Shown: one piece after another, positions 1-24,152 of the stretch
Numbering within the stretch: the stretch's first letter is position 1
How the letters are laid out: each line of letters begins with the position of its first letter
Source of the DNA: a virus
Length of the DNA: 24,152 nucleotides
IMG/VR virus record: IMGVR_UViG_3300013233_000745
Span: 1-24,152 of that record
Reading direction: 5' to 3' (one strand)
Translations under genes and position numbers: made by a program
Notes under the pieces: generated by a model
Databases searched by the model: none
Told to the model about the DNA's origin: nothing
What the model saw: only the letters and a program-made list of their open reading frames with translations

Positions 1-239
1 TGGTTGTCGCGACCGCCCGCGCTCCCCCCCGCTCGAGGCGGCGCTGTCGCCCTGCTCGGTACCAATGCACGCTGGAACGCCGCATATGGCACGGCCCCAG
101 ACGTGCCGGTGTACCCCATCGCGCGCGCAATGGCAGCACCCGCTGTCTTCCCGTGGCTTCGCGTCGGTGTCGAAACCGCCGCCCGGTACCTCGCCGGGTT
201 GCCTCTCGTCGATGATGCGGGCCATCCACTTGGGGGGCT
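1..239. repeat. Left arm of 239-bp terminal inverted repeat
   Basis: Bases 1-239 are the exact reverse complement of 23914-24152; identity stops at 240/23913. The repeat consists of the 5' part of the portal gene. Genuine terminal inverted repeats are not usual for phages with HK97-type heads, so a chimeric read or a folded-back assembly is a strong alternative. Confidence 0.95.
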
Positions 240-2658: not shown

Positions 2659-2951
2659 TGCCAACCGAGATCGCGCGCGAACTGTCGGCACTGCGCGCTG
2701 AAATTGATGATGTGCGCGCGGATGTAGCGGCGGTGCGCGCGATTGTGGCGCCGCTAACGGGGCTATTGCCGGCAATCAGGCGCGCCGAAAAAGAGCAAAT
2801 ACGCGCCGATATTCTCGCGGAAACCAGTGGATCGCGCCAACCATTATGGCGCGATCCAGACGGGCGAACGTGGGTTTTGGCGATCGTAACGCGGGCCGGC
2901 CTGGCCGCAGTAGCCTGCTGCCTAGCACTAGCCGGCGCCCTGGCCCCCTAG
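2658..2951 (+). CDS. Holin-like protein (coiled coil plus C-terminal membrane segment), 97 aa
   Basis: The start ATG at 2658 overlaps the previous stop as TAATG. Residues 1-55 form a charged heptad-like helix (ELSALRAEIDDVRADVAAV). A DGRTW turn follows, and residues about 72-95 are a hydrophobic segment (WVLAIVTRAGLAAVACCLAL) that ends at the C-terminus. An N-terminal coiled coil with one C-terminal membrane span matches XhlA-type haemolysin/holin proteins and several phage holins. Its place after the putative lysin supports a membrane-permeabilising role at lysis. The stop TAG shares the palindrome CTAG with the stop of the last gene of the convergent Gly-rich array. Confidence 0.6.
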   Translation: MPTEIARELSALRAEIDDVRADVAAVRAIVAPLTGLLPAIRRAEKEQIRADILAETSGSRQPLWRDPDGRTWVLAIVTRAGLAAVACCLALAGALAP

Positions 2952-3355
2952 CCTGCGCCGCCGCCGCGGCCATCGCCGCCGCCGTATCCGCGGCCCCCAG
3001 CGTATCCGCCGCCGTAGCCGCGGCCGAGCTCGTCGCCTACGCCCCAGCCGCCGCCGCGGCCGCGGCCGCGGCCGTAGCCATCGCCGCGGCCCCCAGCGTA
3101 TCCGCCGCCGTATCCGCGGCCCCCAGCGTATCCGCCGCCGTAGCTACCGCGGCCGTCACCGACGCCGTCGTCGCCGTAGCCGCGGGCGTATCCGTATCCG
3201 CCGCCGTCGCCGTCGCCGCTGCCGTATCCGTCGCCCCAGCCGTATCCGTCGCCGTAGCCGCCACCGGCGCCCGCGCCGAAGCCGTCGCCGTAGCCGCCGC
3301 TGCTGCCGCCGCCACCCGCAGCGCTGCCGCGGCCATCGTGGGGGCGGCTACTCAT
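2948..3355 (-). CDS. Gly-rich array protein 14 (last of array), 135 aa
   Basis: Starts MSSRPHDGRG at 3355, with an ATG inside the end of the preceding gene (ATGAGTAG, 8-base overlap). The body is built from Gly with Tyr, Asp and Arg. It contains a visible internal repeat GGGYAGGRGYGG that recurs three to four times, and a GVGDELGRGYGG module shared in part with other members. It ends GGDGRGGGAG. Function unknown. There is no Shine-Dalgarno site ahead of the start, which points to reinitiation by ribosomes finishing the upstream gene. Its stop meets the holin-like gene from the other strand. Confidence 0.65.
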   Translation of the reverse strand: MSSRPHDGRGSAAGGGGSSGGYGDGFGAGAGGGYGDGYGWGDGYGSGDGDGGGYGYARGYGDDGVGDGRGSYGGGYAGGRGYGGGYAGGRGDGYGRGRGRGGGWGVGDELGRGYGGGYAGGRGYGGGDGRGGGAG

Positions 3356-3665
3356 TGCCGCGGCCGTATCCGCGGCCGTATCCAGCGCCACGGCTCGAGC
3401 CGCCGCCGTATCCATCGCCGTATCCGCCCCAGGCGTCGCCCGCGCCCGCGCCCGCGATTGCGCCGGAGCCCCAGGCGGCGCCCCAACCCGTGCCGCCGCC
3501 GCCACTGCTGCCGCAGCCCGTGCCGTATCCGCCGCCGCTGCCGCTGCCGTCGCCGCGGCCGTAGTCGTCGCCGAAGCCCCAGGCGCCCCCGTCGCCGTCG
3601 CCGCGGCCGCGGGCGTATCCGTAGCCCGCAGCGCGGCCGCGGCCATCGTGGGTGCGGCTACTCAT
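3348..3665 (-). CDS. Gly-rich array protein 13, 105 aa
   Basis: Starts MSSRTHDGRG at 3665 in an ATGA overlap with the stop of the preceding gene. Compared with its neighbours it has more Ser, Ala and Trp (GTGWGAAWGSG, DAWGG) and a Cys in GTGCGSSGG. It ends GYGRGYGRGNE; the codons for Asn-Glu and the stop also contain the next gene's ATG. The function is unknown. Low-complexity sequence without predicted hydrophobic core suggests a disordered or structural filamentous protein. Confidence 0.65.
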   Translation of the reverse strand: MSSRTHDGRGRAAGYGYARGRGDGDGGAWGFGDDYGRGDGSGSGGGYGTGCGSSGGGGTGWGAAWGSGAIAGAGAGDAWGGYGDGYGGGSSRGAGYGRGYGRGNE

Positions 3666-4054
3666 CGCGCCCCCCAGGCGTAGCCATCGCGGTAGCCAGC
3701 GGCGTATCCGGCGCCGTCGCCGTCGCCGTCGTCGTCACCCCCACCCCCACCCCCGCCGAAGCCAAAGCCCGAGCCGAAGCCGCTACCGCCGTCGCCGGGA
3801 CCCTCGCCCCCGCCGTCGCCGTATCCGTCGCCGCCACCGGCGCCGGCGCCAGTGCTATCGCCGCCGCCGAAGCCGTGGCCGTTGCCGTGGCCGCCGCCGC
3901 CGTCAGCGCCGACGCCGGCGCCGTAGCCGTTTCCGCGCACATCGCCGCCGCCGCGGCCGTATCCGTATCCGTCGCCGTGGCCGTGCCCGAGCTCGTCGCC
4001 CGCGCCGCAGCCGTAGCCGCCGTCACCGCGGCCGTCGTGGGGGCGGCTATCCAT
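3662..4054 (-). CDS. Gly-rich array protein 12, 130 aa
   Basis: Starts MDSRPHDGRG at 4054 within an ATGGATAG overlap. It carries the GAGDELGHGHGDGYGYG module also seen in arrays 9 and 2, a GGGDVRG piece shared with array 11, and near its C-terminus GGGGGGGDDDGDGDGAG. The DDDGDGDG run resembles Asp-rich calcium-binding loops (DxDxDG), though no such activity is shown. The end, GYRDGYAWGAR, departs from the usual Gly pattern. Function unknown. Confidence 0.65.
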   Translation of the reverse strand: MDSRPHDGRGDGGYGCGAGDELGHGHGDGYGYGRGGGDVRGNGYGAGVGADGGGGHGNGHGFGGGDSTGAGAGGGDGYGDGGGEGPGDGGSGFGSGFGFGGGGGGGDDDGDGDGAGYAAGYRDGYAWGAR

Positions 4055-4355
4055 CGCCGCCGCCGTATCCGTCGCCGCAGCCCCAGCCGTAGCCGTAGCC
4101 GCGCACATCGCCGCCGCCACAGCCGTATCCGTAGCTGCCGCCGCCGTAGCCGTCGCCGTATCCGTCGCCGCGGCCGTATCCGTCACCGCCGCCGTCGCCG
4201 TCGCCGCGGCCGAAGCCGCCGCCCCAGCCGTATCCGTCGCCCCAGCCGTCGCCCGCGCCAGCGCCGCCGCCGAGGCCACTGCCATCGCCGTAGCCCGCAC
4301 CGCGGCGATCATCGCCGCAGCCGGCGACGGCGCCGAAGCCATCGTGGCTATTCAT
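4047..4355 (-). CDS. Gly-rich array protein 11, 102 aa
   Basis: Starts MNSHDGFG at 4355, a shortened form of the array signature. The start is placed immediately after the acidic tail codons of the preceding gene (ATGAATAG overlap). The body has GWGDGYGWGGGFGRGDGDGG and a Cys-containing stretch GYGCGGGDVRGYGYGWGCG, ending GDGYGGGDG. Three or four Cys residues spaced in Gly-rich sequence could bind metal or crosslink, but this is not testable here. Function unknown. Confidence 0.65.
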   Translation of the reverse strand: MNSHDGFGAVAGCGDDRRGAGYGDGSGLGGGAGAGDGWGDGYGWGGGFGRGDGDGGGDGYGRGDGYGDGYGGGSYGYGCGGGDVRGYGYGWGCGDGYGGGDG

Positions 4356-4707
4356 CGTCCTCGTCCTCGTCCTCATCGTCCTCATCCTCATCGTCCTCGT
4401 CCTCCCAGCAGCCGAGGCCGCCGGTGCCGTCGCCGGTGCCGTGGCCGTTGCCGAGGCCGCCGCCCCAGCCGCCGCCGCATCCGCCGCCCGCGCCGTATCC
4501 GTCGCCGTGGCCGTGCCCGAGCTCGTCGCCCGCGCCGCGGGCGTTGCCGCCGCCCGCGCCGTATCCGTCGCCGGCCGAGCCGTATCCGCAGCCGGCGACG
4601 GCGCCGCCGCCGTAGCCCGAGCCGCCGCCGAGGCCCGCGCCCGCGCCGAGGCCGGCGTAGCCGCGGCCAGCGCCGAGGCCGCTGCCATCGTGGCGGCGGC
4701 TATCCAT
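4348..4707 (-). CDS. Gly-rich array protein 10 with long acidic tail, 119 aa
   Basis: Starts MDSRRHDGSG at 4707 in an ATGGATAG overlap. Residues up to about 100 are Gly-rich, with LGAGRGYAGLGAGAGLGGG and the shared GAGDELGHGHGDGYG module. A Cys-Trp pair follows, and then eighteen consecutive Asp/Glu residues end the protein (4348-4401). Such acidic tails occur in DNA-mimic and histone-chaperone-like proteins and in proteins that bind basic partners. Here that is only a suggestion. Confidence 0.65.
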   Translation of the reverse strand: MDSRRHDGSGLGAGRGYAGLGAGAGLGGGSGYGGGAVAGCGYGSAGDGYGAGGGNARGAGDELGHGHGDGYGAGGGCGGGWGGGLGNGHGTGDGTGGLGCWEDEDDEDEDDEDEDEDDE

Positions 4708-4882
4708 TGCCGCGGCCGTCGCCGTCGCCGCATCCGCGGGCGTTGCCTCCGCCGTCACCGCGGCCGTCGCCAGCGCCAGCGCCGCGCGTGCCGCCGCCGC
4801 GGCCGTATCCGCCGCCGTATCCATCGGCGGCGCTGGCGCCGCCGTAGCCACCGCCGCTGCCGCGGCCATCGTGGCTATCCAT
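4700..4882 (-). CDS. Gly-rich array protein 9, short, 60 aa
   Basis: Starts MDSHDGRGSG at 4882 and is the shortest member of the array. Its start lies within the codons of the acidic tail end of the preceding gene (ATGGATAG overlap). It contains GGASAADGYGGGYGRGGG and two GDGRGDGG/GDGDGRG pieces rich in Arg and Asp. With one Cys and no hydrophobic core it is unlikely to fold independently. Function unknown. Confidence 0.6.
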   Translation of the reverse strand: MDSHDGRGSGGGYGGASAADGYGGGYGRGGGTRGAGAGDGRGDGGGNARGCGDGDGRGNG

Positions 4883-5177
4883 CCTCGTCCTCCTCCTCGT
4901 CCTCATCGTAGCCGCCGTCGCCGAAGCCGCGGCCGTATCCGCCGCCACAGCCGAAGCCGTCGCCGCGGGCGTCGCCCGCGCCAGCGCCGCTGCCGTCACC
5001 GTCACCGCCGTAGCCGTAGCCGCGGCCGTCGCCAGCGCCAGCGCCGCAATCGTATCCGCCGCCGCGGCCGTATCCGTCGCCGCGGCCGAAGCCGCCGCCG
5101 TCGCCGCGGCCGAAGCCGCCGCCGGCGGCTACGCCGCTGCCGTCGCCGCCGCCGTCGCCGTCGCCGCGGCTATCCAT
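4875..5177 (-). CDS. Gly-rich array protein 8 with acidic C-terminus, 100 aa
   Basis: Starts MDSRGDGDGG at 5177, the one full member whose N-terminus lacks the HDG triplet. It has a clear internal duplication GGGFGRGDGGGFGRGDGYG and a Cys in GGGYDCGAG. It ends GYDEDEEEDEDG, a shorter acidic tail than that of the protein starting at 4707. The stop codon is embedded in the next start (ATGGATAG). Function unknown. Confidence 0.62.
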   Translation of the reverse strand: MDSRGDGDGGGDGSGVAAGGGFGRGDGGGFGRGDGYGRGGGYDCGAGAGDGRGYGYGGDGDGSGAGAGDARGDGFGCGGGYGRGFGDGGYDEDEEEDEDG

Positions 5178-5511
5178 CGTAGCCACCGCCGCTGCCGCCG
5201 CCCGCTCCGGGGCCCGCGCCGCGGCCGCGGCCGCGACCGTCGTCGCCGCCGTAGCCCCAGCTGTCGCCGCCACCGTATCCATCGCCGTCGCCGCGGCCGG
5301 CGCCGTCGCCGCCGCCCCAGCCGGCGCCGTAGCCGCCGCCGTAGCCGTCGCCGATGCCGCGGCCGCGGCCGCGGCATCGGCCGCCGCCGTCGCCGCGGTC
5401 GCCGCTGCCGGCGCCCCCGCCGTCGCCGTAGCCGGCGCCGACGCCGCGGCTGGCGCCGCCGCCGGCGCCGGCGCCGTCGTGGCCACGGCCATCGTGTGTG
5501 GGGCTACTCAT
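5170..5511 (-). CDS. Gly-rich array protein 7, first of the third run, 113 aa
   Basis: Starts MSSPTHDGRGHDG at 5511, seven bases after the stop of the DUF6948-like gene, so it is not stop-start overlapped like the others. The HDG motif is doubled. The body has GGGRCRGRGRGIGDGYGGG and GDSWGYGGDDGRGRGRG, more Arg-rich than the other members, and ends GGSGGGYDG. Function unknown. It begins a run of eight coupled Gly-rich genes ending at 2948. Confidence 0.65.
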   Translation of the reverse strand: MSSPTHDGRGHDGAGAGGGASRGVGAGYGDGGGAGSGDRGDGGGRCRGRGRGIGDGYGGGYGAGWGGGDGAGRGDGDGYGGGDSWGYGGDDGRGRGRGAGPGAGGGSGGGYDG

Positions 5512-5518
5512 TGCCGCA

Positions 5519-5809
5519 TCACTCGCGCCCCGTCCACGGGTCGATCGCCGCGAATGCCGCGACGGCGGCGGCGGAGGCCTCAATGACCTCCGACACGCCG
5601 TACACGGTGACGGCGACCGGCACCGCGATTTTCCCACCGAGTGGACCAATGGCCGCTAGACCGGAACAGCTCCCGGCCCCCGACCATGAATACACCCGAC
5701 GGGCGTCCGTCATGCTGACGGACGCGAGATCGCCACAGATGGTCGGCGAACCGACCATAATACCGTACCACACACCGCTCTGCGAGGAGCGGCAGACCAC
5801 TGCCTTCAT
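5519..5809 (-). CDS. DUF6948-like protein, 96 aa
   Basis: The preferred start is the ATG at 5809 (MKAVVCRSSQSGVW), preceded by GGAGAG with six bases spacing; in-frame ATGs at 5842 and 5830 lie in GC-rich hairpins. The protein has an N-terminal beta-strand region, then ARRVYSWSGAGSCSGLAAIG. From memory the WSGA-x-S-x-x-x-LA motif is the hallmark of DUF6948, a short family of unknown function found in phages and bacteria. The rest alternates strands (KIAVPVAVTVYGVSEVIEA). It has normal amino-acid composition, unlike the Gly-rich genes on both sides. It is the second of two ordinary genes after the promoter-like repeat at 6.2 kb. Confidence 0.7.
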   Translation of the reverse strand: MKAVVCRSSQSGVWYGIMVGSPTICGDLASVSMTDARRVYSWSGAGSCSGLAAIGPLGGKIAVPVAVTVYGVSEVIEASAAAVAAFAAIDPWTGRE

Positions 5810-5814
5810 TTTCG

Positions 5815-5915
5815 TCTCTCCACGCCCCATCCCCAGGGGCATCCCCCATCAGCAGGGGGCGGGCGCCCCCATTATGGGGGCGTGCCGGGCGCTTTTGGCG
5901 CGCCCGTTGCCGTCG
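5815..5915 (-). promoter_or_regulatory. Cluster of GC-rich hairpins between two genes
   Basis: The 106-base gap between the 69-aa gene and the DUF6948-like gene is full of inverted repeats. 5864-5882 reads CGCCCCCATTATGGGGGCG, a perfect palindrome around a central T. 5887-5892 pairs with 5900-5905 (GGGCGC/GCGCCC). Further CCCC/GGGG pairings lie at 5824-5860. On the minus-strand mRNA these would fold just upstream of the ribosome binding site. They may stabilise or attenuate the transcript; no T-run marks them as ordinary terminators. Confidence 0.55.
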
Positions 5916-6125
5916 TCAGCCCCAGAGGGCTTCGGAAAGTTTGTCGGTGTCGATGTCGCCAAAGGCGACGTGCCACGCCTCGGCGAGGCTCATCCATCGG
6001 TGCAATTGGGGGTTGGCGCGGCCGAAGAGGCGAATCGCCTCTTGGGGGGAGATGGTCCCCCCTTCGTCGGCGGCGCGGGCGATCTCGGCGGCGCGGGCGA
6101 TGGTCTCTGTGGAAAAGTACATCAT
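5916..6125 (-). CDS. Small unknown helical protein, 69 aa
   Basis: Two adjacent ATGs (6125 and 6122) overlap the TGA of the upstream Gly-rich frame; GGGAG lies two and five bases ahead of them. The product begins MMYFSTETIARAAEIARAA and continues with ISPQEAIRLFGRANPQLHRW and LAEAWHVAFGDIDTDKLSEALWG. It is mostly helical, with ordinary composition and a Trp-rich C-terminus. The pattern could be a small helix-turn-helix-like protein (ISPQEAIRLFG), but I do not recognise a family. It is the first gene after the 6.2-kb promoter-like repeat. Confidence 0.65.
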   Translation of the reverse strand: MMYFSTETIARAAEIARAADEGGTISPQEAIRLFGRANPQLHRWMSLAEAWHVAFGDIDTDKLSEALWG

Positions 6126-6508
6126 GACTCCCATTCAAGGGGGCGGCTCATCCGCCCCACACAGACATTGTAGCGCGGGGGCCGAAAAAGGCAAGCCCCG
6201 GGGGGCGAAAATCCATCTTTTTTCTGCTCCCGTCGATTACCGGCGTTGGCCGGGCGATAGCCGCGGCCACGACCGAGCTCAACGCCCGCGCCGCCGCCGT
6301 AGCCACCGCCGCCGCCGCTGCCGCCGAAGCCCGAGCCCGAGCCGCCGCCAGCGCCATCGCCGTCGCCGCGGCCGTAGCTCGAGCCGCCGCCGAGGCCACT
6401 GCCATCGCCAGCGCCCACGCCGCCGCTCGAGCCGTAGCCGTAGCCCGCGCCGCTGCCGTAGCCCCAGCCGGCGGCGTAGCCGCGGCCGTCGTGGCAGCGC
6501 CTATCCAT
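6122..6508 (-). CDS. Gly-rich array protein 6, 128 aa
   Basis: Starts MDRRCHDGRGYAAGWGYG at 6508 in an ATGGATAG-type overlap. The Gly-rich part runs to about residue 80 and ends GAGVELGRGRGYRPANAG. The frame then enters the duplicated 160-base element, giving a basic segment NRREQKKDG and an unrelated tail up to a TGA at 6122. The second copy of the element reads a different frame after FSPP because of single-base indels. The last 25-30 residues may therefore not be selected, and the gene may overlap the promoter of the next unit. Confidence 0.58.
   Translation of the reverse strand: MDRRCHDGRGYAAGWGYGSGAGYGYGSSGGVGAGDGSGLGGGSSYGRGDGDGAGGGSGSGFGGSGGGGGYGGGAGVELGRGRGYRPANAGNRREQKKDGFSPPGACLFRPPRYNVCVGRMSRPLEWES
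6140..6158 (-). promoter_or_regulatory. 5' leader hairpin, copy 1
   Basis: Seven-base perfect arms (GGGGCGG and CCGCCCC) flank a five-base loop. It begins almost exactly at the predicted transcript start and sits about 15 bases ahead of the first start codons. Hairpins at the extreme 5' end can protect phage mRNAs from decay; it could equally be an operator. Confidence 0.6.
6167..6194 (-). promoter_or_regulatory. Predicted sigma-70-type promoter, copy 1
   Basis: On the minus strand, -35 TTGCCT (6194-6189) and -10 TACAAT (6172-6167) are separated by 16 bases. Transcription would start near 6160, two or so bases before the hairpin of 6140-6158, and read the 69-aa gene at 6125. Both hexamers and the spacing are conserved in the second copy at 7.4 kb. 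No start site has been measured. Confidence 0.5.
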
Positions 6509-6839
6509 CGCCACAGCCGCGTGCGTCGCCGACGCCCACATCACAGCCGTAGCCGTCGCCGCGGCCGTAGATCGAGCCGCCGCCGCCGCCGCAGCGGTAG
6601 CTGCCGCTGCCGCTGCCGCTGCCGTCGGCCCAGCCGCCGCCGCCGCTACAGCCGCCGCCGTCGCCGACACCGTAGCTGAGGCCGCCGCCGTCGTCGGCGC
6701 CGAAGCCGAAGCCGCCGCCCCAGGCGTCGCCCGCGCCCCAGCCGCCGCCGTCGCCAGCGCCCCCGCCGCCGTAGCCGCGGCCGTAGCCGCCGCCACCCGC
6801 AGCGCGGCCGCGGCCATCGTGGGGGCGGCCGCGGCTCAC
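6501..6839 (-). CDS. Gly-rich array protein 5, GTG start, 112 aa
   Basis: Begins at GTG 6839 as MSRGRPHDGRG, overlapping the TGA of the upstream gene as GTGA. The HDGRG signature is displaced by one or two residues compared with the others. The body contains GYGRGYGGGGAGDGGGWGAG and a Cys/Trp-containing middle (GGCSGGGGWADGSGSGSGS), and ends VGDARGCGDG, close to the end of array protein 3. The non-ATG start in the same overlap position supports reinitiation. Function unknown. Confidence 0.62.
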   Translation of the reverse strand: MSRGRPHDGRGRAAGGGGYGRGYGGGGAGDGGGWGAGDAWGGGFGFGADDGGGLSYGVGDGGGCSGGGGWADGSGSGSGSYRCGGGGGSIYGRGDGYGCDVGVGDARGCGDG

Positions 6840-7159
6840 CAGGCGGTGAGCCCGTCGCATCCGACGGGACGCCCGTCGGTGTCCCTCCGGAGCGGGCCGG
6901 GCGACATTACGTCGGCCCGCGCCGCCGCCGCGGCGACAATACCAGACACCACATACGTGGTGCCCGGCACCGGTGCGGGCAACCCCGTCGGGGCTCCCCG
7001 CTCTACCAGGGTCACCCGCACATGCGGATGGCCCGTCACGAACCCGGCATCCAGCCGGGCCTCCGCGACCCGCGCGGGGGTCGCGGAGGGTTCCAGGACG
7101 ATGGGCGCCCCATCGTCCCGGAATATCACCACTTGGTGTGGCGTCAGGTTGATCAGCAC
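6836..7159 (-). CDS. Small phage protein with INLTPH N-terminus, 107 aa
   Basis: Starts at GTG 7159 (MLINLTPHQVVIFRDDG), overlapping the upstream stop as GTGCTGA. The sequence continues APIVLEPSATPARVAEAR, then GLPAPVPGTTYVVSGIV, then ARADVMSPGPLRRDTDGR and ends VGCDGLTAW. I recognise this order (NLTPH..., a P-S/A-x-x-ARV block, GLPAP...YVVS, R-x-DV-x-x-PG) from small conserved proteins of unknown function in phages of high-GC bacteria. The longer open frame upstream is a shadow of the repeat element and should not be included. It forms a two-gene unit with the preceding 60-aa gene. Confidence 0.72.
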   Translation of the reverse strand: MLINLTPHQVVIFRDDGAPIVLEPSATPARVAEARLDAGFVTGHPHVRVTLVERGAPTGLPAPVPGTTYVVSGIVAAAAARADVMSPGPLRRDTDGRPVGCDGLTAW

Positions 7160-7335
7160 GTCGCCGTCGCCGCGGCCGAAGCCGCCTCCGCCTCCGCCTC
7201 GGTCGCCCGCAGCGGCACTTCCGCCACAGCCTGTCCTTCGAGGGCGGCGGCTTCGGCTTCGGCGCGGGTAAGGTGGGCGCTTACGGGCCCACCAGCTTCG
7301 TGGTGTCGGTCCACCACGACATATATTGTCATCAT
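7153..7335 (-). CDS. Small unknown protein, 60 aa
   Basis: Starts MMTIYVVVDRHHEAGG at 7335 (or 7332), with AAAGG five bases upstream. The N-terminal hydrophobic strand MTIYVVVD is followed by LTRAEAEAAALEGQAVAEV, an Ala/Glu-rich helix, and a low-complexity Ala/Glu/Thr tail ending with Cys. The composition is ordinary apart from the tail. The stop overlaps the start of the INLTPH gene by seven bases. No family recognised. It is the first gene behind the 7.4-kb promoter-like element. Confidence 0.62.
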   Translation of the reverse strand: MMTIYVVVDRHHEAGGPVSAHLTRAEAEAAALEGQAVAEVPLRATEAEAEAASAAATATC

Positions 7336-7343
7336 CGCTACCT

Positions 7344-7509
7344 TTAGGGGGGCGGCTCATCCGCCCCACACAGACATTGTAGCGCGGGGGCGAAAAAAGG
7401 CAAGCCCCGGGGGGGCGAAAATCCATCTTTTTTCTGCGACCGTCGATTACCGGCGTTGGCCGGGCGATAGCCGCGGCCACGACCGAGCTCAACGCCCGCG
7501 CCGCCGCCG
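7344..7509 (-). repeat. Duplicated 160-bp promoter-like element, copy 2
   Basis: Second copy of the element at 6138-6299. The stretch from the leader hairpin through AAGCCCC and the poly-A run to CGATAGCCGCGGCCACGA is almost base-for-base the same. The copies lie about 1.2 kb apart and both separate a run of Gly-rich genes from a pair of ordinary genes. Confidence 0.85.
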
Positions 7510-7547
7510 AAGCCGCTGCCACGGCCATCGTGGTGGGGGCTATCCAT
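7344..7547 (-). CDS. Gly-rich array protein 4, short with basic tail, 67 aa
   Basis: Starts MDSPHHDGRGSGFGGGAG at 7547 with an ATGGATAG overlap. Only about 25 Gly-rich residues follow before VELGRGRGYRPANAGNRR and QKKDGFSPP, which come from the duplicated element. The final 20 residues (Phe/Pro/Ala-rich) are in a different frame from the other copy. It may be a full member cut down by insertion of the promoter element. Function unknown. Confidence 0.55.
   Translation of the reverse strand: MDSPHHDGRGSGFGGGAGVELGRGRGYRPANAGNRRSQKKDGFSPPRGLPFFAPALQCLCGADEPPP
7376..7403 (-). promoter_or_regulatory. Predicted sigma-70-type promoter, copy 2
   Basis: Minus-strand -35 TTGCCT (7403-7398) and -10 TACAAT (7381-7376) with 16-base spacing, as in copy 1. 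Although the neighbouring homopolymers changed length, the spacing stayed at 16, which argues for selection on the promoter. Leader hairpin arms are 7349-7355 and 7361-7367. The first gene read would be the 60-aa protein at 7335. Confidence 0.5.
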
Positions 7548-7875
7548 CGCCACCGCCGCGGGCGTCGCCGCCGCCCACGCCCCAGCCGCCGCCGCATCCG
7601 AAGCCCGAGCCGTAGCCCGAGCCGCCGCCCCAGCTCGAGCCGCCGCCCCAGCCGTATCCGTCGCCCCAGCCGTCGCCAGCGCCAGCGCCGCCGCCGCCCG
7701 CGCCGCCGCCGTCGCGGTAGCCCCAGCCGGCACCGGCGCCCCAGCCGGAGCCGGTGCCGGTGCCGTCGCCGTAGCCGCGGCCGCAATCGTATCCAGCGCC
7801 GATGCCCACACCACCGCCGTCGCCGCAGCCCCAGCCGGCGGCGTAGCCGCTGCCGTCGTGGGGGTGCCTACTCAT
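7540..7875 (-). CDS. Gly-rich array protein 3, 111 aa
   Basis: Starts MSRHPHDGSGYAAGWGCG at 7875. The body includes DGTGTGSGWGAGAGWGYRDGG, GDGWGDGYGWGGG and a long stretch with Trp and Ser (GSSWGGGSGYGSGFGCGGG), ending GGGDARGGGDG. Trp rather than Tyr is the main aromatic residue, unlike proteins later in the array. Function unknown. It overlaps its neighbours at both ends by stop-start fusions. Confidence 0.65.
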   Translation of the reverse strand: MSRHPHDGSGYAAGWGCGDGGGVGIGAGYDCGRGYGDGTGTGSGWGAGAGWGYRDGGGAGGGGAGAGDGWGDGYGWGGGSSWGGGSGYGSGFGCGGGWGVGGGDARGGGDG

Positions 7876-8167
7876 CGTAGCCGCCGTATCCGTCACCGCG
7901 GCCGCCACCGGCGCCCGCGCCGAAGCCGTCGCCGCGGGCGTATCCGCGGCCGAAGCCCGAGCCGCCGCCGAAGCCGTTGCCGTTGCCGTCGCCGTAGCCC
8001 CAGCCGGTGCCGTGGCCGTGCCCGAGCTCGTCGCCCGCGCCGTATCCGTATCCGTAGCTGTCACCGGCGCCGCCGTCGCCGAAGCCGCCGCCGCCGCCGA
8101 AGCCCGCGCCGCTGCCGTAGCCCCAGCCGGCGGCGTAGCCGCGGCCATCGTGGGGGCGCCTACTCAT
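7868..8167 (-). CDS. Gly-rich array protein 2, 99 aa
   Basis: Starts MSRRPHDGRGYAAGWGYG at 8167, nearly the same first eighteen residues as array proteins 3 and 6, showing recent duplication of the 5' ends. It carries the GAGDELGHGHGTGWGYG module and GNGNGFGGGSGFGRGYARG, and ends GYGGYDE. Function unknown. The stop overlaps the next start as ATGAGTAG. Confidence 0.65.
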   Translation of the reverse strand: MSRRPHDGRGYAAGWGYGSGAGFGGGGGFGDGGAGDSYGYGYGAGDELGHGHGTGWGYGDGNGNGFGGGSGFGRGYARGDGFGAGAGGGRGDGYGGYDE

Positions 8168-8699
8168 TGCCGCCGCCGCGTGCGTCGCCGTCACCGCTGC
8201 CGTCGCCAGCGCCGCCGCCGCGGCCGTATCCGCGGCCGTATCCGCGGCCGCCGCCCGAGCCGCCGCCGAAGCCGTGGCCGTTGCCGTGGCCGGCGCCCCA
8301 GCCGGCGCCGCCACCGGCGCCGCCACCGGCGCCAAAGCCGTATCCATAGCTGTCACCGGCGCCGCCGCCCGCGCCGTCGCCCGCGCCGTCGCCCGAGCCG
8401 GAGCCCCAACCGTCGCCGTCGCCGTCGCCCGCGCCGTCGACGACCCCCAGGTGACGCCTACCATCATCGCGCGTCGCCAGCGGCAGCGCGGGCGGCGGCG
8501 CTGGCGACGGCGCTGGCGACGGCGGCGAATAGCAGCTAGCCGCCGCCAGCGCGGCGCGCACCCACGCGGCGCGGGTCGTGCCGGCGGCGGCGGCGGCGGC
8601 GCCGATCGCCGCCAGTAGCTGCGGCGGCATCGCCACGCGCGATAGGCGCGCGCCATATGCCGGGCGTCCACGACGGCGATGTGGTCGTACGCTCATCAT
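8160..8699 (-). CDS. Ribbon-helix-helix domain fused to a Gly-rich tail (array protein 1), 179 aa
   Basis: Two ATGs at 8699 and 8696 overlap the exonuclease stop as ATGA. Residues about 18-54 read RLSRVAMPPQLLAAIG then GTTRAAWVRAALAAA. This is a strand of alternating residues, a helix, a G-T-T turn and a second helix, as in Arc/CopG-type ribbon-helix-helix DNA-binding proteins. A Pro/Ser/Ala linker (about 58-72) leads into DGAGDGDGDGWGSG and a Gly-rich tail like that of the array, ending GDARGGGNE. The N-terminal MMSVRPHRRRG resembles a degenerate form of the array signature. The fusion suggests the Gly-rich tails can be attached to DNA-bound proteins; the cell target is unknown. Confidence 0.65.
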   Translation of the reverse strand: MMSVRPHRRRGRPAYGARLSRVAMPPQLLAAIGAAAAAAGTTRAAWVRAALAAASCYSPPSPAPSPAPPPALPLATRDDGRRHLGVVDGAGDGDGDGWGSGSGDGAGDGAGGGAGDSYGYGFGAGGGAGGGAGWGAGHGNGHGFGGGSGGGRGYGRGYGRGGGAGDGSGDGDARGGGNE

Positions 8700-9439
8700 T
8701 TCCCCTCGCCGTGCCAATGTGCCGCCAGATGTAGGGCTTCGAGGTCCATAATCGCGCGCATCAGCCACACGTCCTCGCGGACATGCTCATCAATCGCGAC
8801 GAGGTCATCGGCGGCCCATGCGTCCGCGATATCACCGCCGGTACCGGCATTTACGGCGAGCCCGTAGCTCTGTGCCACGCGCTGCAATCCCCATCCGCTG
8901 CGCCGGTCCATCGCGCGCGCAATGCATCGCTCGGACGGATCGTCGCACCGCACCGACGACCAATATGCCCTAGCGCCGCGAATTTCCGGCCGCACGAGCA
9001 TACCTAGCGGCTGTTGCAGCCGCTGTAGCCGCACGAGCCTACCACGCAGGTACGGAAAATCGAAAGACCCCCCGTTCCACGCCGACAATGCGACCACATT
9101 GTGCCGCTGTAGCCACTCATTCGCGCCGTCGATGACGCTCATTTCGTCACCGACCGCCGACCACACGTCGGCCGGCCCGGTACAGGGCGCATCGGCGACC
9201 GCCAGGCCGATCGCGACAATATGTGACGTATCGGGAGCGATCGTGCGATGTAGCAGCCACCGCCGACGCTGCTCCTCCCTCTTCGCGTCGCCGATCGTGC
9301 GCCACCATTTTGCGATCGCATCGGCGGAACGGTAGTTCCCCGGCGGCTTTACGCCGGCTGTAGCCTCGGCGGGCAAGTCGATCGGGCGGCCGCGCGCAAT
9401 CACGTCCGCCACACACTCCACGTCGATCAGCGCCCTCAT
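8696..9439 (-). CDS. DEDD-type 3'-5' exonuclease (DnaQ/PolB exonuclease-like), 247 aa
   Basis: Exo I motif D-x-E is in ALIDVEC (Asp6, Glu8). VKPPGNY and the following helix are typical of phage exonucleases of this group. TSHIVAIGLAVAD gives the next strand. Exo II is in SAWNGGSFDFPYLRGR (Asn and Asp), and Exo III is in HVREDVWLMRAI. In DEDDy enzymes the last motif is YxxxD; here His occupies the Tyr position with the same spacing. It would degrade DNA 3' to 5' with two metal ions, and beside an ERF protein it may prepare single strands for recombination. The ATG at 9439 overlaps the previous gene as ATGA. Confidence 0.8.
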   Translation of the reverse strand: MRALIDVECVADVIARGRPIDLPAEATAGVKPPGNYRSADAIAKWWRTIGDAKREEQRRRWLLHRTIAPDTSHIVAIGLAVADAPCTGPADVWSAVGDEMSVIDGANEWLQRHNVVALSAWNGGSFDFPYLRGRLVRLQRLQQPLGMLVRPEIRGARAYWSSVRCDDPSERCIARAMDRRSGWGLQRVAQSYGLAVNAGTGGDIADAWAADDLVAIDEHVREDVWLMRAIMDLEALHLAAHWHGEGK

Positions 9440-9627
9440 GGCGCTGCTCGCCGATCATGCGCCGCCGCCGCCGCATATGCCGCGGCGAGCCCCATTGCCA
9501 GCAGCGCGTTGGCGGCGCTCGCTGGATTCGGGCGCACCCCCGTGCGCGTGTACACCCATTCGCGATATTCGGCGATCCGCGCCTTGTTTGCCACGGTAAT
9601 CGCCAGTCGTTGTCGCGTGTGCGCCAT
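9436..9627 (-). CDS. Small putative DNA-binding protein, 63 aa
   Basis: Start ATG 9627 (MAHTRQRLAITVANKARI), preceded by AGGAGG with four bases spacing. The product has a short basic strand (RQRLAITV), a helix (NKARIAEYREWVYTRTG) and a second helix (PASAANALLAMGLAAAYAAA). That order fits a ribbon-helix-helix-like dimer that could regulate this divergent region, but the match is weak. It is the first gene of the leftward operon and overlaps the exonuclease start. Confidence 0.6.
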   Translation of the reverse strand: MAHTRQRLAITVANKARIAEYREWVYTRTGVRPNPASAANALLAMGLAAAYAAAAAHDRRAAP

Positions 9628-9772
9628 CGTACCTCCTGGCCCCCAGGTAGCCCGGGGGGCCGCCCGCGCGCCACCCATCCAGCGTACCCCCGGTATCCCC
9701 AGGGCGCCCCGACGGTGGCGGGTGGCGCGCGGGGGCCACCCGGGCTACGGGGGCCCAGGAGGTACGATGGCG
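9622..9772. repeat. Large inverted repeat holding divergent start sites
   Basis: Left arm 9622-9676 and right arm 9720-9772 are near-perfect reverse complements of about 53-55 bases, with only a few single-base gaps. The centre, 9677-9719, is unique. Each arm contains AGGAGGTACGATGGCG reading outward, so both divergent genes have the same leader, ribosome binding site, start codon and second codon (Met-Ala). No convincing -35/-10 pair is seen. The region is likely the shared control site of both operons. Confidence 0.85.
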
Positions 9773-10549
9773 GATGGGAGTGGGCCCATGAGTGGGCCCC
9801 TGATGGCGGTGTTGCGTGACGGATGCGCGATGTCCGCAGAATGTGGTGCATTGTTCGCCGCATTGGCGGCGGCGCAGGGGGACTTTCCGCCGCTTCAACG
9901 CGACCGTAACGTGCGCGTGCGGATGAAAAAGGGCGGGGAATACAGGTACAGGTACACCACGCTCGGCGCGCTGCAGCGCGCCACAAGGCCGATTCTGGCC
10001 GCTCACGAGCTGGCGCTCACGCAGCTCACCCATCGCGTACACGGCGCGGTCGGCGTAGTGACGATTCTCGGCCACGCCAGCGGACAATGGCTCGCCGCGC
10101 TGACAATGGTCGACGTGATGGATACGGACGCGCAAGTGCAGGGCGGCGGATACACCTATGCGCGGCGATACGGGTGGGCCGCGATACTCGGCGTCGCAAG
10201 CGAACAAGACACCGACGGTCCACCCCAAAGCGACGAAATATCACGCCATGTGGGCCCGTCGCCGCGGCCGGCGCCGACGCCTGCGCCCGCCCCGACGGGC
10301 GGGCACCACCCGTCGTGGAAGGCAGATCGCAAGCGCTTCTGCGCCGCGATAGCGCCGCTTGGCGGCTACGAAACGGTCGCGGCCTACTGTGAGCGGCGTG
10401 GTTGGGGCCGCCCGTCGGCGTGGGCGCAGGCGTGGCGCACCAAGTGGCTAGCCCGCCACGGCGATCTGCCGGCCGGCGTGTGGGCCGACATGCTGGAGAG
10501 CGTCGAAATGCACCCCGATAATGTCGGGGAAAACAAGGAGGAAGGATGA
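9767..10549 (+). CDS. ERF-family single-strand annealing recombinase, 260 aa
   Basis: Start ATG 9767 follows AGGAGG in the inverted repeat; the earlier in-frame ATG lies in the divergent gene and is rejected. The N-terminal half carries the ERF hallmarks: YRYRYTTLGALQRATRPIL, a strand GVVTILGHASGQWLAA, and QGGGYTYARRYGWAAILGV followed by acidic EQDTDG. A Pro/Ala-rich linker joins a C-terminal helical part (KRFCAAIAPLGGYETVAAY). ERF proteins anneal complementary single strands in phage recombination and genome circularisation. The divergent exonuclease is a natural partner. Confidence 0.85.
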   Translation: MADGSGPMSGPLMAVLRDGCAMSAECGALFAALAAAQGDFPPLQRDRNVRVRMKKGGEYRYRYTTLGALQRATRPILAAHELALTQLTHRVHGAVGVVTILGHASGQWLAALTMVDVMDTDAQVQGGGYTYARRYGWAAILGVASEQDTDGPPQSDEISRHVGPSPRPAPTPAPAPTGGHHPSWKADRKRFCAAIAPLGGYETVAAYCERRGWGRPSAWAQAWRTKWLARHGDLPAGVWADMLESVEMHPDNVGENKEEG

Positions 10550-22775: not shown

Positions 22776-24152
22776 CTAGCGGCCGTTGTCAAACGACCGT
22801 AAATGGATCGCGCGTTCGCGCGCAAAAATGGCGCTCTTCGACACGCTTATGCCGCGTGCCGTCGCCGCGCGTACCGTCGCCTCTTGCAGTCGTGCTTCAT
22901 CCTCCGCTACCGACTTCGCCAGCGCCGGATGCAGGCCATCCACTAGGAGCGCCGCCCGAAGCGCCGTCGCTTCCGTTTCGCGATCGGTGACACCCAGTGT
23001 CCACCGTCGACCCGCGTCCGCCAACGCATCCGACAGCCGATCCTGCGGCTGCCCCTGGGGTCCGGGCGGCCGCCCCGACAATCCCGCGGCAGCATGGCGG
23101 CCCGCGCGGGCCGCGACATCGGATGGGTACCCTTGCGCGAGCATCGCATCTGACGGTGAGTACCCAAGCGGCGCAGATGCCATCGTCTTTGCGCGGTTCA
23201 AACGCTCCGTTTCCGCCGCTTGCAGCGCATCGATGTGGCGAAAATCATGCCTGATCGGACGCCCGTATACAGCCGACAGGAATGCGTCCATCGACTTTGA
23301 CCGCTCGCGATAATAGCCCCAGAACCCGCGCATCTGCTGGCGCGACTCGCCGTACCCCGCAGACGGAATGCCGGACATGACCGGAGGGATATGCATCAGC
23401 GCTAGCGCGGCGGCTTGCGCGCGCGATACCGCCGCTTGAAACTCCATATCGCGGAACGACATGGCGGCTGGTTTGAGCTCGAAGGCCTCGTCGAGCAGGA
23501 ACAGGCCCATTCCTGCGGTCGCCACCTTGTCCCATTCCGCGTACAACTTCGCCTTGACGCGGTCCGACAATCGCACCTGGTCATTTTTGGCGGTGCCGAT
23601 GTACGACACATGGCCGCGTTTCGCCGCTTTCGCGGACAGGCGGTCTACCGACCATTCAGTGTTCAACATCGCCTCGAGCGCCTTGACCGCCGACGTGCCG
23701 CGATTGTTTGGCGAGCCCGACAACGTCAGCCCTGCATGCCACTCGATAGGGGTCAGCACCTCACGGCCGTCAGGCGCCTGGTAGCCGATGGCGACGCCGT
23801 CTCGGACGAGACCTATCGCAGGATGCAGGTAGGAGCGTGATTGTCGGAGAGCCCACACCTCCTCGGCTACAATCTCGCTGACCCACCAGCCGAGCCTATC
23901 GCGCGTGCGAAGGAGCCCCCCAAGTGGATGGCCCGCATCATCGACGAGAGGCAACCCGGCGAGGTACCGGGCGGCGGTTTCGACACCGACGCGAAGCCAC
24001 GGGAAGACAGCGGGTGCTGCCATTGCGCGCGCGATGGGGTACACCGGCACGTCTGGGGCCGTGCCATATGCGGCGTTCCAGCGTGCATTGGTACCGAGCA
24101 GGGCGACAGCGCCGCCTCGAGCGGGGGGGAGCGCGGGCGGTCGCGACAACCA
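22776..24152 (-). CDS. Phage portal protein, partial at the window edge, at least 457 aa
   Basis: The reading frame is open through the right edge (24150-24152 is TGG), so the true start may lie outside the window or close to it. It contains YPIARAMAAPAVFPWLRVGV, GSPNNRGTSAVKALEAML, DRLSAKAAKRGHVSYIGTAK, GMGLFLLDEAFELKPAAMS and QQMRGFWGYYRERSKSM. These are typical of HK97-family portal proteins, which form the twelve-fold ring for DNA entry. Terminase should precede it. The last 239 bases are the right arm of the terminal inverted repeat. Confidence 0.8.
   Translation of the reverse strand, partial: WLSRPPALPPARGGAVALLGTNARWNAAYGTAPDVPVYPIARAMAAPAVFPWLRVGVETAARYLAGLPLVDDAGHPLGGLLRTRDRLGWWVSEIVAEEVWALRQSRSYLHPAIGLVRDGVAIGYQAPDGREVLTPIEWHAGLTLSGSPNNRGTSAVKALEAMLNTEWSVDRLSAKAAKRGHVSYIGTAKNDQVRLSDRVKAKLYAEWDKVATAGMGLFLLDEAFELKPAAMSFRDMEFQAAVSRAQAAALALMHIPPVMSGIPSAGYGESRQQMRGFWGYYRERSKSMDAFLSAVYGRPIRHDFRHIDALQAAETERLNRAKTMASAPLGYSPSDAMLAQGYPSDVAARAGRHAAAGLSGRPPGPQGQPQDRLSDALADAGRRWTLGVTDRETEATALRAALLVDGLHPALAKSVAEDEARLQEATVRAATARGISVSKSAIFARERAIHLRSFDNGR
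23914..24152. repeat. Right arm of 239-bp terminal inverted repeat
   Basis: Exact reverse complement of 1-239, and entirely inside the portal coding sequence. The arms diverge at 23913, where the portal reading frame continues (LLRTRDRLGWWV) while the left arm runs into non-portal sequence. Confidence 0.95.

What the first reader, a model, noticed from the sequence alone, without database searches (positions are those of the whole stretch)
9622..9772. Near-perfect 53-55-bp inverted repeat giving two divergent genes identical leaders, SD and start codons
Seen in sequence: the arms 9622-9676 and 9720-9772 mirror each other, including AGGAGG, the spacer TACG, the ATG and the second codon GCG. 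Divergent operons often share operators, but mirroring of the translation start itself is unusual. It predicts that the two mRNAs have the same 5' region, so one RNA- or DNA-binding protein, or a complementary overlap between the divergent transcripts, could control both recombination genes at once. It could also form a cruciform.
Basis: partly seen in the sequence, partly recalled or inferred. Interest (0 to 1): 0.6.

Follow-up and report, generated by a model that had tools for sequence, protein, structure and literature searches.

The report
Mirrored gene starts in a phage
In a GC-rich phage, the start region of a DNA-recombination gene has probably been copied in mirror image onto the neighbouring gene that runs the other way, and any RNA that spans both copies is predicted to fold up and hide the translation start.

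Summary
Arms 9622-9685 and 9712-9772 match as inverted repeats: 57 of 60 ungapped columns, 4 short indels. The match includes AGGAGG, TACG, ATG and GCG. It exceeds every shuffle, also with SD-to-codon-2 left out. The divergent genes are an ERF annealing protein (+, 9767) and a 63-aa ORF (-, 9627) whose stop overlaps a weakly PolB-exonuclease-like gene.

Only one relative with this gene order was found (G001). It lacks the mirror although both genes are present with ordinary starts. Its ERF start resembles both window starts more than its own 104-aa gene's start does. My best reading is a lineage-specific inverted duplication of the ERF leader, by replication template switching.

Predicted consequence: transcripts starting about 145 nt or more upstream of either ATG hide SD and ATG; shorter ones leave them at least partly free. 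This resembles the RBS-occluding stem-loop of IS200 and could insulate both genes from read-through. Selection for that is unproven. A shared operator remains possible; no promoter or binding site was identified. Interest is moderate. A tandem array of overlapping glycine-rich ORFs next door may deserve its own look.

The parts
9622..9685 (-). left arm: leader, AGGAGG (9632-9637), TACG spacer, ATG (9625-9627) and codon 2 of the 63-aa gene
9712..9772 (+). right arm: leader, AGGAGG (9757-9762), TACG spacer, ATG (9767-9769) and codon 2 of the ERF gene
9686..9711 (.). spacer between the extended arms; promoters unlocated
9767..10549 (+). ERF-family ssDNA annealing protein, 260 aa
   Evidence: PF04404 E 1.3e-13; phrog_2324 E 1.1e-24; 379 phage records with matches, all under 60% identity
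9436..9627 (-). 63-aa ORF, no family found; stop overlaps the start of the next gene
   Evidence: single-sequence AF2 model of two helices, pLDDT 80
8696..9439 (-). putative 3'-5' exonuclease, weak PolB-exonuclease similarity
   Evidence: PF03104 E 0.0031, below cut-off; homologue in G001
8526..8696 (-). weak ribbon-helix-helix-like stretch downstream of the exonuclease gene; a candidate DNA-binding protein only
   Evidence: RHH_1 12.9 bits in a search of this record, 13.5 bits, E 0.07 in Pfam; cut-off 20.5

Best explanation
The mirror is an inverted duplication (quasi-palindrome). The leader and start codon region of the ERF gene was copied in reverse complement onto the front of the divergent 63-aa/exonuclease operon, most likely by a template switch during replication in this phage lineage (inferred). 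Shown by computation: both genes now carry nearly the same leader and the same SD-spacer-ATG-GCG, and an RNA that covers both arms folds into a long hairpin that buries SD and ATG, whereas an RNA that starts between the arms leaves them at least partly free. Inferred: the region therefore acts as a two-way insulator, so that ERF and the 63-aa/exonuclease operon are translated from transcripts born inside the region and not from read-through RNA. That function is a consequence of the structure; selection for it is not shown.
For: Arms 57 of 60 ungapped columns identical, above all shuffles, also with the SD-start part left out. Symmetry ends sharply at codon 2. The one relative with the same divergent gene order, G001, shows no mirror: score 16 against shuffle mean 17.1, 65% of shuffles reach it. 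G001's ERF start (CCAGGAG, 5 nt, ATG) matches the window's ERF start in motif and spacing, while its 104-aa gene starts with GGGAGG, 7 nt, GTG; so the window's 63-aa start looks like an ERF start (n = 1). Folding with ViennaRNA: mean unpaired probability of SD and of ATG 0.0 for 5' ends 150-220 nt upstream in both directions; SD mean 0.27-0.82 for 5' ends 20-130 nt upstream; G001's two genes show no such all-or-none switch over 20-210 nt. Template switching as a source of inverted copies and RNA hairpins is described in PMC8794818 and PMC7202029 (abstracts and opening text seen).
Against: Only one relative with the locus was found, so direction and age of the copy rest on n = 1, and the intergenic regions do not align above shuffles. 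Two strong SDs would look partly alike anyway. No promoter was recognised, so transcripts born between the arms are assumed. Partial SD pairing is also predicted for some shorter ERF transcripts (0.33-0.40 at 80-100 nt, 0.27 at 130, 0.0 for the SD at 140). GC-rich sequence folds strongly anyway (shuffle mean -99.7 kcal/mol against -137.4).
Confidence: 0.5

Rival explanations
1. Shared operator: a DNA-binding protein (the 63-aa product, the weak RHH-like product at 8526-8696, or a host protein) binds the two mirrored arms and represses both promoters together.
For: Divergent genes with a symmetric control region; a weak RHH_1 hit in the same operon.
Against: The 63-aa ORF matched no Pfam or PHROG family and its single-sequence model is two helices with no strand and no credible solved-structure match. 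An operator does not need mirrored SD, ATG and codon 2. G001 lacks the mirror. The RHH hit is below cut-off.
Confidence: 0.25
2. Cruciform or hairpin with a DNA-level role (replication origin, packaging or recombination site), the gene starts being carried along.
For: Very stable as single-stranded DNA, z -8.8, 0 of 200 shuffles as low; it sits beside recombination genes; GC skew changes sign near 9.5-10 kb.
Against: Skew changes are small and occur elsewhere too; the mirror is absent in G001; the symmetry runs through the start codons.
Confidence: 0.1
3. Mobile palindromic element (REP- or MITE-like) inserted between the genes.
For: A related contig (L037) carries dispersed palindromes of that sort between genes.
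Against: No other full copy in the window; the 5 viral contigs matches to an arm pattern share little beyond the searched core; best match in 50,697 phage records E 0.6 over 24 bases.
Confidence: 0.05
4. Assembly or amplification artefact.
For: The contig carries an exact 239-bp inverted repeat at its two ends, which looks like a chimera.
Against: The 9622-9772 arms differ by 3 substitutions and 4 indels and each sits in front of an open gene, unlike an exact chimera.
Confidence: 0.05

Closest known systems
Quasi-palindromes made by replication template switching (E. coli thyA, T4 rIIB hot spots; PMC7202029, PMC8794818)
   Same: An imperfect inverted repeat with a short spacer and long matching arms; a one-event origin is plausible.
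   Different: The copied piece contains a whole translation start and serves a second, divergent gene; the ancestral state is known from one relative only.
IS200-type stem-loop that occludes the ribosome binding site, together with a stem-loop that ends impinging transcripts (as described in PMC3196728, passage seen); IS10 fold-back inhibition is recalled, no paper seen
   Same: RNA entering from outside would fold so that the RBS is hidden.
   Different: Here it would act in both directions on two phage genes, with no transposase involved and no experimental support.

Membership tests
Template-switch quasi-palindrome | Two arms in inverted orientation, short spacer, above chance | tested here: met
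Template-switch quasi-palindrome | Ancestor lacks the inverted copy | tested here: inconclusive
   G001 lacks it, but n = 1 and the intergenic regions do not align above shuffles
RBS-hiding fold-back against read-through RNA (IS200/IS10-like) | RBS hidden in transcripts entering from outside, free in own transcript | tested here: inconclusive
   Predicted by folding; transcript starts unknown
RBS-hiding fold-back against read-through RNA (IS200/IS10-like) | Reduced translation of read-through RNA shown by experiment | not testable with these tools
   needs reporter fusions
Divergent shared operator | Regulator binds symmetric sites in the region | not testable with these tools
   no binding data; candidate regulators weak
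ERF superfamily (PF04404) | Domain match above gathering score | tested here: met
   51.6 bits against 25
PolB-type exonuclease | Domain match above gathering score | tested here: not met
   17.4 bits against 23; named only as putative

The most novel reading that the evidence does not exclude
A two-way translational insulator: one inverted repeat holding two complete ribosome binding sites silences both divergent recombination genes in any RNA that crosses the region from either side, so that only transcripts born between the arms are translated.
Probability: 0.2. Interest if true: 0.6.

Novelty: new variant of a known kind. Interest (0 to 1): 0.38.

Why it matters
If real, it shows how a single copying slip can hand a gene a ready-made translation start and at the same time create a two-way RNA switch over a phage recombination module. 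A whole-collection scan for paired starts (CCATNNNNCCTCCT, 100-130 nt, AGGAGGNNNNATGG) returned 2 stretches in 2.9 million viral contigs, neither with long arms; the window's own record, or near ones, may be left out of that scan, and the pattern fixes the SD, spacing and neighbouring bases, so it misses looser cases.

Tried and rejected
Relatives by protein: ERF, exonuclease and 63-aa queries each found none in viral contigs; the exonuclease alignment found only G001 again; the major-capsid candidate found 5 loci and an alignment of it found 22, one of them the same L009, none in genome contigs. Of the records searched, ERF was found in 2 of 5 and 1 of 22 (that one, G027, came in through a DNA pattern and not as a capsid relative), the exonuclease in 1 of 5 and 0 of 22 (no positive control); many are short fragments, so absence says little. 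Only G001 has both. Upstream of ERF in G002 and G027 I saw no divergent partner of this kind (by reading).

Rfam gave nothing at gathering level, no tRNA. Structures of the 63-aa ORF and of the G001 104-aa protein (pLDDT 50) from single sequences were uninformative; Foldseek best E 7.6; PDB sequence searches found nothing credible. I first suspected both small proteins of being ribbon-helix-helix from their sequences; the RHH_1 search did not support that for either. Literature searches brought no described case of a phage inverted repeat with mirrored translation starts; they cover open-licence papers only and a handful of term sets.

Full report
What is there. The window is a whole viral contig of 24,152 bases. 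Around 9.6-9.8 kb an ERF-family annealing protein gene (9767-10549, +; PF04404 E 1.3e-13; phrog_2324 E 1.1e-24) diverges from a 63-aa ORF (9436-9627, -). The 63-aa stop overlaps the ATG of a 247-aa gene (8696-9439, -) with weak similarity to PolB-type exonucleases (E 0.0031, below cut-off).

The repeat. Arms 9622-9685 and 9712-9772 align with 57 identities in 65 columns, 3 mismatches and 5 gap positions in 4 indels; score 91 against at most 66 in 2000 shuffles. With AGGAGG-to-GCG removed the rest scores 63 and 0 of 5000 shuffles reach it, though the best shuffle got 62. The symmetry stops after codon 2. The two 16-base start regions are identical and occur nowhere else in the window within 3 mismatches. 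In 36 other viral loci fetched, local inverted repeats at E <= 1e-6 were seen in one, L037, whose three largest, at 68 to 100 bits, approach the window's 109 bits; there they look like copies of one palindromic element between genes (by reading).

Relatives. One contig, IMGVR_UViG_3300025168_000814 (G001), has a 51%-identical capsid protein, an ERF gene and an exonuclease homologue in the same divergent order, with a 104-aa ORF in the place of the 63-aa one, also overlapping the exonuclease start. Its roughly 80-base gap shows no mirror (score 16, shuffle mean 17.1). Its ERF start reads CCAGGAG-5 nt-ATG, like both window starts; its 104-aa gene start reads GGGAGG-7 nt-GTG. I read this as the ERF start having been copied onto the other gene in the window's lineage. 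That rests on one relative, and the intergenic regions themselves do not align above shuffles.

What it could do. As RNA, 9610-9785 folds at -137.4 kcal/mol (shuffles -99.7, sd 5.0), as DNA z -8.8. For transcripts whose 5' end is 150-220 nt upstream of the ATG the mean unpaired probability of SD and of ATG is 0.0 for both genes. For 5' ends 20-130 nt upstream the SD mean is 0.27-0.77 (ERF) and 0.36-0.82 (63-aa gene). At 140 nt the SD is already hidden, the ATG not (0.72 and 0.40). In G001 the SD mean is 0.21-0.81 for ERF and 0.26-0.67 for the 104-aa gene over 20-220 nt, with no such switch except a drop at 220 nt for the latter. Read-through RNA would thus be poorly translatable at these starts, RNA born between the arms translatable. 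The resemblance is to IS200, described as having one stem-loop that ends impinging transcripts and one that occludes the RBS (passage in PMC3196728). No promoter was recognised, so whether transcripts are born there is open.

How it arose. Template switching makes inverted copies and can create or perfect hairpins in one event (abstracts and opening text of PMC8794818 and PMC7202029). A sharp boundary at codon 2, few substitutions between arms, and absence in G001 fit that. The same window holds other duplications (direct repeats 6134-6316 and 7343-7526).

Verdict. A real and unusual structure, probably lineage-specific, with a plausible ordinary origin and an untested regulatory consequence. 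Six literature searches brought no described equal; they cover open-licence papers only.

Noticed in passing
window 2948-8167, minus strand: Twelve glycine-rich ORFs sharing a start like M[SD]SRPHDGRG and GYGDG-type repeats. Many neighbours overlap by 8 nt at the same kind of stop/start junction (for example 7868-7875, 5170-5177, 4700-4707, 3348-3355). No Pfam match for 3 of 3 tried; no ORF over 38% glycine in any other locus examined. Possibly a more striking feature than the one given.
   Followed up: partly
window 1-239 and 23914-24152: Exact 239-bp inverted terminal repeat containing the start of the portal gene. The gene order of G001 suggests a chimeric contig end more than a true terminus, but this was not settled.
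   Followed up: partly
window 6134-6316 and 7343-7526: Direct repeats of mostly intergenic sequence, 90-94% identical.
   Followed up: no
window 10277-10310 and 10400-10433: Second inverted repeat, 34-nt arms 85% complementary, inside the ERF coding sequence after the ERF domain.
   Followed up: no
window 8526-8696, minus strand: Weak ribbon-helix-helix-like stretch after the exonuclease gene.
   Followed up: partly
L037 10-206, 3550-3664, 4588-4724: Three similar palindromic elements between genes of a capsid-related contig.
   Followed up: no
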